Shown one piece after another: positions 45,996 to 49,476 of a stretch of 64,000 nucleotides of DNA (its first letter is position 1; the number at the start of each line of letters is the position of its first letter). The stretch comes from Thermococcus onnurineus NA1 (GTDB lineage Archaea; Methanobacteriota_B; Thermococci; Thermococcales; Thermococcaceae). Position numbers and translations under genes: made by a program. Below the pieces are notes generated by a model. It was not told where the DNA came from and ran no database searches. It was given only the letters and a program-made list of their open reading frames with translations. The DNA lies in NCBI RefSeq assembly GCF_000018365.1, contig NC_011529.1, positions 124,001 through 188,000 on the forward strand, in the 5' to 3' direction.

Positions 45996-47873
45996 TCATG
46001 CCTTCTCAAGCTGGAAGGGGCTGATATAGTCACCGTACTTTTCCCTGGCCTCGAGCAGCCTCTTCCTCTCCTCCTCGAGAACCTGGAAGAGCTCCTCCGG
46101 AGCTTCCTTAACCTGTTCGCGGTAGATCTTCTCGATACGTTCTATCTTCGCCAGAAGTTCCGGAACCCTAATGGTGAACTGCTTCTCGTAGTCCTCCCTG
46201 CTGTAGTCCTTGTTGAGAACCTCCCTGAAGAGCCTTGCTAAGTCCCCATACTTCGGGATGTAGCCTATGGGAGTATCTATGGCATCGACGTCGCCGTGAA
46301 CGCGGAGCTCCATCCACTTGAGCCAGACTGCCTTGTCGAGCTTATGGTTGAGCCAGTTGCCGTCCTCATCGCGGAGGAAGTAGTTCACCGCGAATATCTT
46401 GGGGGCTTTTCTGAGCTTCTTCTCGAACTCAAGGTAGTTCTCGATGTATTCGCCGAGGGGAACACTCATGAAGTCGAGTATAGCCATCGGGTTGAAGGCT
46501 CTAACTCCTTCCTTTCCAAGGGTTGCGGCGGTTGTCTCACTCTCAAGAGCAGCACCCATCGTTATGACGCCATGCTTCCAGTCGAAGGCTTCCCTGACTG
46601 GCGGCCATGTGTCCTTGTCCCTGCCTCCGAAGATCATGCCACCAACCTCGACGCCGCAGGGGGCCTCAAGCGCTTCAAGGTCAACATTCGGGAAGTGCTC
46701 AAGGCTGACTGTGAAGCGAGCGTTCTTGTGGCTCGGCGGAATCTCGTTTCCTTCGGCGTCTTTCTTTCCGCGCCACCACTCCCCGCTGTGGTTTTCACCC
46801 TCGCCTGGTATTGGTACGCCCATCTCGTTCCAGTAGGGCTTTCCGTCCTTGACGAGGACGTTGGAGAAGATTATCTCGACGGGCGAATGGAGAACCTGCC
46901 AGATTATCGGATCGTCTTCGGGATTGACGCCCTGGATTATGCCAAAGACACCCTTCTCGACGTTTGCTCCACGGGCTATTCCGTTCATGGGTACGATGAA
47001 CGTCAAATCATCGCCGACGATGTTCTCCCAGGATATCATGGCGGTGGATGTCTTTCCGCACATGCTGGGATAAGCGCCGGTGAAGTAGGTCTTCCTGCCG
47101 TTGGGACCGTTTACTCCCATCAGGAACATGTGTTCGCTGAGCCAGCCCTCTCTAACGGCGCGCTGGATGGTGAGCCTGAAAGCGAGCTTCTTAAGGCCTA
47201 TCGTGTTACCGCCGTACTGGGTGTTGACAGAGTAAACGGTCTCATCAACTAGGTCGATGTAGATACGCCTCTTATCGAGGTTCTTGCTCGTCTTCCTCTC
47301 GTCGAGCTCCCCAGCTGAGTGGACAAACTTGAAGAAGCGTGCGCTTCTTCCGAGACGTTTAAACTCTTCATAGCCCTTCCTGTAAAGGATGAACTCTGAG
47401 TGGGCTACATAAGCAGAATCCGTGAGCTGGACGGCAGGAATCGTGAAGACCGAGTTCTTCGGCCCAAGGACGAAGAAGCACACGAAGAGCTCCTTACCCC
47501 TCATAACTCCTTTCATCAGCTCGCGGATTTCCTTCAACCCCTCGTCCCTATCCTTAGTGTTGAGGAAGGGAATCTTCTTTCCACCAGGAACGAGGAGCTT
47601 AGTATTGGCCTTGTCGCGGGCCTGGTCGTAGTAGTTGTCGTAATGGACGGTGTGGTTCGGTGTCTCGAGAATCTTTTCCTCACCGTAGTAGAGCGCCTTC
47701 CAGCGGACGTAGAACTCGTCCTCTTCGTTGTCAGTACAGACGAAAACCTTGCTTGGTTCAAGCCACTCAATCCACTCCACCAAAAACTTGTGAAGCTCTG
47801 GATTGTCGATGGCTTTAATCTTCTCAAATTGCTCTTTATCGAGGAGCTTTTCAAGCCTTTCGAGGGCATTCAT
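45996..47873 (-). CDS. pckG: phosphoenolpyruvate carboxykinase (GTP)
   Basis: Converts oxaloacetate + GTP to PEP + CO2 + GDP, or the reverse. 625 residues. The GTP-type P-loop (kinase-1a) with its hyper-reactive Cys is AYPSMCGKTSTAMIS. Substrate motifs YGGNTIGLKKLAFR and the metal/kinase-2 region WENIVGDDLTF are present. ATG 47873 follows TCTGGAGGCGATAAC; the longer frame crosses the promoter. A 7-bp inverted repeat flanks its TATA element. Confidence 0.96.
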   Translation of the reverse strand: MNALERLEKLLDKEQFEKIKAIDNPELHKFLVEWIEWLEPSKVFVCTDNEEDEFYVRWKALYYGEEKILETPNHTVHYDNYYDQARDKANTKLLVPGGKKIPFLNTKDRDEGLKEIRELMKGVMRGKELFVCFFVLGPKNSVFTIPAVQLTDSAYVAHSEFILYRKGYEEFKRLGRSARFFKFVHSAGELDERKTSKNLDKRRIYIDLVDETVYSVNTQYGGNTIGLKKLAFRLTIQRAVREGWLSEHMFLMGVNGPNGRKTYFTGAYPSMCGKTSTAMISWENIVGDDLTFIVPMNGIARGANVEKGVFGIIQGVNPEDDPIIWQVLHSPVEIIFSNVLVKDGKPYWNEMGVPIPGEGENHSGEWWRGKKDAEGNEIPPSHKNARFTVSLEHFPNVDLEALEAPCGVEVGGMIFGGRDKDTWPPVREAFDWKHGVITMGAALESETTAATLGKEGVRAFNPMAILDFMSVPLGEYIENYLEFEKKLRKAPKIFAVNYFLRDEDGNWLNHKLDKAVWLKWMELRVHGDVDAIDTPIGYIPKYGDLARLFREVLNKDYSREDYEKQFTIRVPELLAKIERIEKIYREQVKEAPEELFQVLEEERKRLLEAREKYGDYISPFQLEKA

Positions 47874-47894
47874 GTTATCGCCTCCAGAAAGAGT

Positions 47895-47935
47895 TGAACG
47901 ATGTCTTAAATAGTTTATTTGGTAAACCTCGTTCA
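47895..47935 (-). promoter_or_regulatory. 7-bp inverted repeat flanking the pckG TATA element
   Basis: TGAACGA (47895-47901) and its exact complement TCGTTCA (47929-47935) bracket an AT-rich ACTATTTAAG core promoter on the minus strand. Spacing of half-sites is three helical turns (34 bases start to start). A looping or dimer-of-dimers repressor is possible. No TGM is seen here. Confidence 0.4.
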
Positions 47936-48011
47936 TCAGTGTATTTATGAGTTCAGTCATGTCCCCGTACGCAGAGTATATCGACCTCTGGATAGTCCAG
48001 CGGTGCATGGA

Positions 48012-48758
48012 ATGAAGGCAGTTATTCTGGCGGGGAAGGGAACTAGACTACTTCCGCTCACAGTCTACAGACCAAAGTCCATGATACCGTTCTTCAACAG
48101 GCTGCTGATGGAGTACACTTTCCAGAACCTCATCAAAGCCGGAGTTGAGGAGATATACATTCTCTTTGGCTATCTCAAGAAGCGCATCATGGAGTACTTC
48201 GGCGAGGGTAGTCAGTGAGGAGTTGAGATACACTAATCCAACGGCAAGAACGTCAAGCTTGAGACGGCAGGTGTGATAAAAAGGTGGTCACTCACATAGA
48301 CGAGACATTTTTCGTCGTTTCCAGTGATGTGCTCACGAACCTTGACCTCAAGGCGCTCTACAATTACTACATCAGGAAAAGGGCCTCGCGACGATAGCAC
48401 TGTCCAAAGTTGAAGATCCAACGCAGTATGGCGTAACCATAATAGACCACAACGGCTGAATCATTAGATTCGTCTGAGATAAGGGGCTTCGCCCTACTCG
48501 GGGATGATGTGGAAATCGGCAGAAACGTTAAAATAGAGCGTTTGGTGATATTATCAAATGTCACTCATAGATAAAGGTGTCGAGATTGAGGAAGTCATAA
48601 TAGGCGAGAATGTTCACATAGGTAAGGGCGTGATTATCCAGTCCGGAAGCCTTATAGGTGATAACACGCTCATCGAAGACTTCGGCAAGATCTGCTCCAA
48701 CGTTAAGGTTTGGGTGGAGTCGAGGATTGGTAGGGAAAGTATTATACTGCCTGACTGA
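48012..48758 (+). pseudogene. decayed sugar-phosphate nucleotidyltransferase (mannose-1-P guanylyltransferase-like)
   Basis: A start-to-stop remnant of a gene normally coding for ~410 residues. Frame 1 gives the N-terminal nucleotidyltransferase signature (MKAVILAGKGTRLLPLTVYR, one Gly short) and stops at 48218. Other frames give TFFVVSSDVLTNLDLKALYNYY, ALSKVEDPTQYGVTIIDHNG followed by an in-frame TGA. The left-handed beta-helix end follows (LLGDDVEIGRNVKIER ... IGRESIILPD). At least two frameshifts, one nonsense codon and an internal deletion of about 100 codons are implied. It sits directly before a phosphohexomutase-like gene, its usual pathway partner. Confidence 0.85.
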
Positions 48759-48768
48759 GGTGGTGAAT

Positions 48769-49476
48769 GTGGAAGTGTATTACTCCCAGAGGTTCAACCC
48801 CGAGGAGCTTGCCCTTCTTGGAAGGGCCATAGGAACGATATCCCACGGGACCATAATCGTCGGAAGGGACGGCAGAGCGATTTCCCGATACGGAAAGAGG
48901 GCAATGGTGGTCGGAATAGTCAGCACCGGCTCGACCATAATGGACGTCAGGCTCATTCCCCTCATAGCGCTCAAAGATTTTGCACACAGGAAGGGTCTTC
49001 CTCTGGCTTACGTCTACTACTACGGCGGCGTTAGGGTTTACGTCAGTGGCATAGACAGCGAGGAAATAAAAGCCATCCTCGAGAGCAAGAGCTTCATAGA
49101 AGCGCAGCCCAACGACATTGGCGCGACAGTCTATTATCCCAACGCTCTCGACGACTTCCTGCACGAAATATTCAAGCACTACAACTTCCGCGTTAAGGGC
49201 AAAGCCCTTGTGGATGCAATGAACACCCCCGCGGTGCTCTTCTTCCCACGGATAAGCGACCACTTCGGCTTCGAGGTCGAGCTGATAAACGACATGATGA
49301 CGAGCTATTTACCGCCGAAACCGAAGGAGGTCTTCCTTCATAAGCTGAACAAGGGGGACTACGACTTTGGACTGCGCTTCAGGCCAGAAGGTGTCGTCGA
49401 GTTATACAAAGATGGCGAAGAGCTTGAGTTTAGCAGCATGTGGAAGCTCCTCGATCACATGAAGAAGAACCTTTGA
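48769..49476 (+). CDS. degenerate phosphomannomutase-like protein
   Basis: A 235-residue protein from GTG 48769 (GAGGTGGTGAAT in front). It aligns by eye to domains I-II of alpha-D-phosphohexomutases: IIVGRDGRAISRYGKRAMVVGIVSTGSTI is the domain I fold, and the region ALVDAMNTPAVLFFP is domain II. The phosphoserine loop (normally TASHNP) is replaced by YYYGGVRVYVSG, and the Mg-binding DGDGDR by FGLRFRPEG. Domains III-IV are absent. It cannot be a conventional mutase. Its frame is intact although the upstream partner has decayed. Confidence 0.75.
   Translation: MEVYYSQRFNPEELALLGRAIGTISHGTIIVGRDGRAISRYGKRAMVVGIVSTGSTIMDVRLIPLIALKDFAHRKGLPLAYVYYYGGVRVYVSGIDSEEIKAILESKSFIEAQPNDIGATVYYPNALDDFLHEIFKHYNFRVKGKALVDAMNTPAVLFFPRISDHFGFEVELINDMMTSYLPPKPKEVFLHKLNKGDYDFGLRFRPEGVVELYKDGEELEFSSMWKLLDHMKKNL

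What the first reader, a model, noticed from the sequence alone, without database searches (positions are those of the whole stretch)
48012..48758. Sugar-nucleotidyltransferase pseudogene with clear start and end but broken middle
The N-terminal signature, a middle piece and the left-handed beta-helix end are all recognisable in different frames, with one in-frame TGA and about 100 codons missing. Decay of an activated-mannose gene could affect glycan or compatible-solute metabolism in this strain.
Basis: seen in the sequence. Interest (0 to 1): 0.5.

Follow-up and report, generated by a model that had tools for sequence, protein, structure and literature searches.

The report
Decayed sugar-nucleotide gene in Thermococcus
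A gene for making an activated sugar is really broken in this heat-loving archaeon, just as it has been lost many times in its relatives, while its neighbour gene is kept; this is ordinary gene loss.

Summary
The pseudogene is real. Window 48012-48758 is the remains of a 361-codon sugar-phosphate nucleotidyltransferase with a left-handed beta-helix tail; the nearest sister (G026) has it intact in the same place. The copy has three in-frame stops (not one), two -1 frameshifts, one +1 frameshift, a 3-base loss in the nucleotide-binding signature and a 335-base deletion, so sequencing error cannot explain it. The genome length (1,847,607) is that of Thermococcus onnurineus NA1.

Loss is recurrent. 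Of 61 genomes of the genus, 33 keep the gene intact, 5 hold remnants, and in 23 the protein search found none (one of these is incomplete). In other genera of the order, 30 of 33 are full-length. Trees suggest about 11 losses in the genus (9 on a conservative count). The next gene (48769-49476), a shortened sugar-phosphate mutase relative that seems to lack its catalytic motifs, is found in 93 of 94 genomes and is strongly conserved.

'Activated mannose' is not supported: the mannose model's cut-off is not met, an intact GDP-mannose enzyme gene lies elsewhere, and the gene does not track mannosylglycerate synthase (p = 0.61). In three relatives the shrunken remnant is still an open frame ending at the neighbour's start; suggestive only.

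The parts
48012..48758 (+). Pseudogene of a 361-codon sugar-phosphate nucleotidyltransferase (PF00483 domain plus left-handed beta-helix tail)
   Evidence: E 3.7e-14 to PF00483 over a stretch read with stops inside; orthologue intact in G026 and 32 other genomes of the genus
48216..48218 (+). First in-frame stop TGA, where G026 has TGG
48234..48236 (+). Second in-frame stop TAA, where G026 has TAC
48278..48282 (+). A run one base shorter than in G026 (frameshift)
48377..48380 (+). A run one base shorter than in G026 (frameshift)
48457..48459 (+). Third stop TGA, where G026 has AGA
48467..48478 (+). Junction of the 335-base deletion (about 48471^48472)
48558..48758 (+). Remaining open stretch of the beta-helix end, in frame with the native stop (66 codons)
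47971..47985 (+). Promoter-like element with three mismatches to GCAAAGTATATTAAC, which 18 of 33 genomes with the intact gene hold without mismatch, sister G026 among them (7 of the 33 have 3 to 5 mismatches). A 4-base deletion against G026 follows at about 47991
   Evidence: The promoter role is inferred from position and conservation
48769..49476 (+). Downstream gene: shortened sugar-phosphate mutase-like protein, about 235 aa, intact. Its probable ribosome-binding sequence overlaps the native stop of the pseudogene
   Evidence: start codon and ribosome-binding sequence are inferred by eye
45996..48008 (-). Divergent phosphoenolpyruvate carboxykinase gene (TON_0192 in print), upstream neighbour
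   Evidence: locus tag from PMC4463584, matched by product name. The true start may be internal, since homologues in other genomes align only from residues 17-48 on, apart from a weak piece in G026

Best explanation
The feature is a unitary pseudogene: the only copy of a sugar-phosphate nucleotidyltransferase, inherited from the ancestor of the Thermococcaceae and inactivated in the Thermococcus onnurineus lineage after it split from its sister G026. It used to be the first gene of a probable two-gene operon with a mutase-like partner. Shown: the lesions, the intact orthologue in the same place in relatives, the raised rate of change, and the partner's continued conservation. Inferred: it makes no active enzyme, the enzyme was dispensable because other sugar-nucleotide enzymes remain or its product is needed only in some habitats, and the partner has a function of its own that does not need the enzyme.
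For: Lesion map against G026. Same gene order, carboxykinase / nucleotidyltransferase / mutase-like gene / thymidylate kinase, in G026, G045, G018, G003, G034, G047, G051 and in remnants G016 and G036 (some loci end inside a flanking gene). 33 of 61 genomes of the genus have a full-length copy without stops. In other genera 30 of 33 are full-length; G083 is split over two contig ends, G063 is cut by a contig end and has one stop in the piece held, and G061 has none. dN/dS against G026 is 0.256 for the pseudogene (228 codons) versus 0.059-0.093 for the five intact-intact pairs computed and 0.031 for the downstream gene. Of changes that can be assigned, 41 fall on the pseudogene branch and 10 on the G026 branch. 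No intact close paralogue: with the N-terminal 68 residues as query, the best other match in the genome is 45% identical over 62 residues.
Against: The codon-position test gave no clear result: 18/7/16 changes at positions 1/2/3 on the pseudogene branch (chi-square p = 0.086, so not clearly uneven) but no difference from the G026 branch either (5/1/4, Fisher p = 1.0). dN/dS of 0.256 is well below 1, so much of the branch predates the loss or constraint was partial. The deletion leaves the start, the native stop and a 66-codon open end. No expression data were available.
Confidence: 0.95

Rival explanations
1. Sequencing or assembly errors make an intact gene look broken.
For: Two of the lesions are one-base losses in A runs, a common error type.
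Against: Three stop codons made by substitutions, a 335-base deletion, a 3-base deletion and an inserted base together are very unlikely to be errors. The substitution rate of the region is also raised. The genome is one contig.
Confidence: 0.01
2. The remnant is not mere debris: it is kept as a leader frame whose translation delivers ribosomes to the downstream mutase-like gene, and repeated loss of the enzyme shrinks it step by step to nothing.
For: The probable downstream ribosome-binding sequence overlaps the native stop. In G023, G036 and G044 the shrunken remnant is open from about the native start to the native stop (118, 148 and 87 codons) despite deletions and many substitutions. All five remnants keep 3' sequence. 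The promoter-like element stays recognisable (at most 2 mismatches) in five genomes without the gene (G022, G039, G041, G054, G056).
Against: In the window itself, and in G016, the frame is broken by stops and frameshifts. The chance of staying stop-free under random change is not small for single remnants (0.13 to 0.72 depending on the assumed number of changes). The pattern was noticed after the fact. In most genomes without the gene the promoter-like element has 3 or more mismatches.
Confidence: 0.1
3. A programmed frameshift or stop read-through yields a working shortened enzyme.
For: Start and native stop are kept and the length is a multiple of three (747 bases).
Against: Several stops and shifts would have to be recoded at once. 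The 335-base deletion removes about 112 codons between the nucleotide-binding half and the helix tail, and a residue of the binding signature is lost.
Confidence: 0.01

Closest known systems
GDP-mannose pyrophosphorylase beta-type / archaeal sugar-phosphate nucleotidyltransferases (PF00483 with left-handed beta-helix tail)
   Same: An intact orthologue (361 aa) matches solved mannose-1-phosphate guanylyltransferases (8yre_D 157 bits, 7d72_K 148 bits) over nearly its whole length.
   Different: The best PDB match is named a UTP-glucose-1-phosphate uridylyltransferase (8x7s, 200 bits). No NCBIfam cut-off was met in the rows seen (25 of 59), so the substrate is open. The window copy is broken.
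Unitary pseudogenes and lineage-specific gene loss in prokaryotes
   Same: Single-copy gene decayed in place with neighbours intact.
   Different: Here the same gene has been lost many times in one genus while its neighbour is kept.
Alpha-D-phosphohexomutases (downstream gene only)
   Same: The predicted model of the downstream protein matches these folds (Z 12.6, 3.5 A over 215 residues to 2f7l), and a profile search finds them (best E 9.8e-12, 9ix8).
   Different: Only about 235 aa against about 450. No HNP and no DxDxD motif occurs in any of the 26 aligned homologues; that these mark the catalytic and metal loops is recalled.

Membership tests
Nucleotidyl transferase, PF00483 (ancestral gene) | Curated Pfam cut-off for an intact orthologue | tested here: met
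   P0001 (from G045) 201.2 bits versus 21.2
Nucleotidyl transferase, PF00483 (window copy) | Continuous reading frame with complete GG-x-GT-R signature | tested here: not met
   Signature one residue short; three stops, frameshifts, 335-base deletion. The first 109 positions still score over the Pfam cut-off (52.9 bits)
Mannose-1-phosphate guanylyltransferase (NF052502) | Curated score cut-off | tested here: not met
   263 versus 440 bits for an intact orthologue
GMPPB C-terminal domain (PF25087) | Curated Pfam cut-off | tested here: not met
   16.8 versus 39 bits
GDP-mannose pyrophosphorylase | GTP and mannose 1-phosphate as substrates | not testable with these tools
   Needs an enzyme assay of an intact orthologue
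Unitary pseudogene | Intact orthologue in the same place in relatives and no intact copy in the genome | tested here: met
Unitary pseudogene | Relaxed constraint | tested here: inconclusive
   dN/dS raised about threefold, but the codon-position test did not separate the branches
Unitary pseudogene | No functional product | not tested
   No expression or protein data
Phosphohexomutase (downstream gene) | Domain I, curated Pfam cut-off PF02878 | tested here: met
   26.3 versus 22.5 bits
Phosphohexomutase (downstream gene) | Catalytic serine loop (S-H-N-P) and metal loop (D-x-D-x-D) | tested here: not met
   No HNP or DxDxD in any of 26 homologues; the profile alignment puts other residues there, though it ends inside the metal loop. 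Motifs recalled

The most novel reading that the evidence does not exclude
Across Thermococcus the enzyme gene is lost again and again, but its dying remnant is kept for a time as a short leader frame whose translation feeds ribosomes into the nearly universal mutase-like gene, which has a role of its own. Gene decay would thus pass through a stage in which the debris works as a regulatory leader.
Probability: 0.1. Interest if true: 0.5.

Novelty: new member of a known kind. Interest (0 to 1): 0.22.

Why it matters
As a pseudogene it is ordinary. The wider pattern makes a question testable: one gene of the pair is dispensable and lost about eleven times in one genus, while the other, a mutase-like protein that seems to lack its catalytic motifs, is found in 93 of 94 genomes examined. 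That points to an unassigned core function of the partner in Thermococcaceae, and offers intact, remnant and empty versions of one locus for studying how archaeal genes disappear.

Tried and rejected
Co-occurrence with mannosylglycerate synthase (PF09488) was tested and gave no association. Redundancy with the bifunctional GDP-mannose enzyme was looked at: 24 of 28 genomes without an intact nucleotidyltransferase have it over the family cut-off. The other four are G015 and G036 (no match) and G016 and G052 (partial), so redundancy alone need not explain every loss. A codon-position test for neutral decay was inconclusive. A shuffle test for frames ending at the downstream start (27 genomes) gave p of 0.007 or less for G000, G023, G036 and G044 and 0.024 for G033, but it is the wrong null for inherited frames, so the simulation is preferred. 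A 7-base repeat (CCTCCGA) near both ends of the 335-base deletion was seen in G026 by eye, but the junction does not fit it exactly; left open.

Dropped rows: G040 (73% complete; no strong match to either gene) is left out of the tree and locus comparisons, which hold 60 of 61 genomes. dN/dS rows for flanking genes other than G000-G026 were computed but are not used, because pieces may not be in register (the phosphorylase against G018 plainly is not). Gene order was compared on 33 loci plus the window, not on all 60. G022 has no carboxykinase match in its locus, so its upstream region is simply the last 300 bases.

Literature: searches listed no paper on this locus by title or abstract start; one search found no paper at all. 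Most listed papers were not opened and supplements were not readable here, so no claim is made that the locus is undescribed. Passages only were seen of PMC2718504, PMC5316973 and PMC4463584.

Full report
What was checked. The window is C1:124001-188000 of a single-contig genome of 1,847,607 bases. A table in PMC2718504 gives exactly this length for Thermococcus onnurineus NA1 (passage seen). The same table gives 2,045,438 for T. gammatolerans and 2,088,737 for T. kodakarensis, which equal the contig lengths of G007 and G012. Names for genomes rest on these lengths. The upstream neighbour, phosphoenolpyruvate carboxykinase, is TON_0192 in PMC4463584 (passage), matched by product name.

The observation. 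PF00483 matches the first part of the stretch, read in one frame with stops inside (52.9 bits). The intact orthologue of G026, 361 aa, maps onto the stretch in five pieces over three frames at 79-84% identity. The DNA alignment gives a 3-base deletion in the binding signature, stops at 48216, 48234 and 48457, one-base losses in two A runs, a 335-base deletion and one extra base (letters rechecked). A 4-base deletion and three changes in a promoter-like element lie upstream. Its estimate of about 100 codons missing is right.

Is it decay. Against G026 the pseudogene has dN 0.064, dS 0.249, ratio 0.256 over 228 usable codons. Five intact-intact pairs give 0.059-0.093. For G000 versus G026 the flanking genes give 0.031 (downstream), 0.072 (carboxykinase), 0.030 (thymidylate kinase) and 0.099 (glucan phosphorylase). 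With eight outgroups, at least six of them agreeing, 41 changes fall on the pseudogene branch and 10 on the G026 branch. Against a simple reading, changes by codon position are 18/7/16 on the pseudogene branch and 5/1/4 on the G026 branch, which do not differ (p = 1.0); the filter also favours conserved sites. The ratio under 1 suggests that constraint held for part of the branch, so the loss came after the split from G026.

Distribution. In 61 genomes of the genus, 33 have a full-length copy without stops. G000, G016 and G036 are broken, and tblastn at the locus adds remnants in G023 and G044. In the other 23 the protein searches found no orthologue; of these G040 is incomplete and has no strong downstream-gene match either, and G022 shows traces by eye. 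Outside the genus, of 33 genomes 30 are full-length, G083 is split over two contig ends, G063 is cut by a contig end and has one in-frame stop in the piece held, and G061 has none. On trees of three neighbouring proteins (60 genomes; 69 with outgroups) the losses in the genus number 11 with midpoint rooting (11 to 16 over all rootings) and 11 with outgroups (13 in all there, counting G061 and G063). Merging nodes with support under 0.9 gives 9, and parsimony with gains allowed 10 changes. The two trees differ in places, the largest gene-less clade has support 0.853, and neighbouring genes need not follow the species tree. Five losses look independent by their different lesions; G000, G016, G036 and G044 each have an intact sister on both trees.

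What the gene was. An intact orthologue has the nucleotidyltransferase domain and hexapeptide repeats. Its best NCBIfam model is a mannose-1-phosphate guanylyltransferase, far under cut-off (263 versus 440 bits; 25 of 59 families shown). The best solved relative is named a UTP-glucose-1-phosphate uridylyltransferase; mannose-1-phosphate guanylyltransferases come third to fifth (60 of 109 shown). The substrate is thus open. The genome keeps five other clear nucleotidyltransferases plus a weaker one, among them a bifunctional GDP-mannose enzyme over its cut-off (529.6 versus 372.95 bits). It has no mannosylglycerate synthase match, and presence of that gene is unrelated to presence of the nucleotidyltransferase in the genus (16 of 33 versus 11 of 28, p = 0.61).

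The neighbour. The downstream gene probably starts about 10 bases after the pseudogene's stop. It is found with strong similarity in 60 of 61 genomes of the genus and 33 of 33 outside it (the G063 copy is reported with one stop). Profile search links it to phosphohexomutases. A model of moderate confidence (mean pLDDT 69.9, pTM 0.67) matches their fold (Z 12.6, 3.5 A, 215 residues). It is about half their length, and none of 26 homologues holds an HNP or DxDxD motif. It is therefore probably not an active mutase, yet it is kept where the enzyme is gone.

A possible use of the remnant. In G023, G036 and G044 the shrunken gene is still open from about its start to its own stop, next to the downstream start. 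Simulation puts the chance of a stop-free remnant at 0.13-0.72 each, depending on how many changes came after the loss, before counting the need for in-frame deletions. G000 and G016 do not show the pattern. I treat it as a lead, not a finding.

Verdict. A real, ordinary pseudogene in a lineage where this gene is often lost. The mannose and compatible-solute reading is not supported.

Noticed in passing
48769-49476: The intact downstream gene is a half-length phosphohexomutase-like protein without HNP or DxDxD motifs, yet it is found in 93 of 94 Thermococcaceae genomes and is strongly conserved.
   Followed up: partly
L076, L079, L085 (G023, G036, G044): Three separate shrunken remnants of the same gene remain open frames of 118, 148 and 87 codons ending at the native stop.
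   Followed up: partly
47971-47985: A promoter-like element shared by most genomes with the gene, and by several that lost it, has three changes in this genome compared with none in the sister G026.
   Followed up: partly
48012-48758: 24 of 41 assignable substitutions on the pseudogene branch are C>T or G>A.
   Followed up: no
G016:C1:1301325-1302266: The bifunctional GDP-mannose enzyme of G016 matches only over 3-324 of 467 positions, under its cut-off, so it may be shortened or broken as well.
   Followed up: no
L075 (G022): In G022 no carboxykinase match lies beside the downstream gene; the glucan phosphorylase comes next instead.
   Followed up: no
45996-48008: The longest carboxykinase frame may start too early: homologues in other genomes mostly align only from residues 17-48 on.
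   Followed up: no
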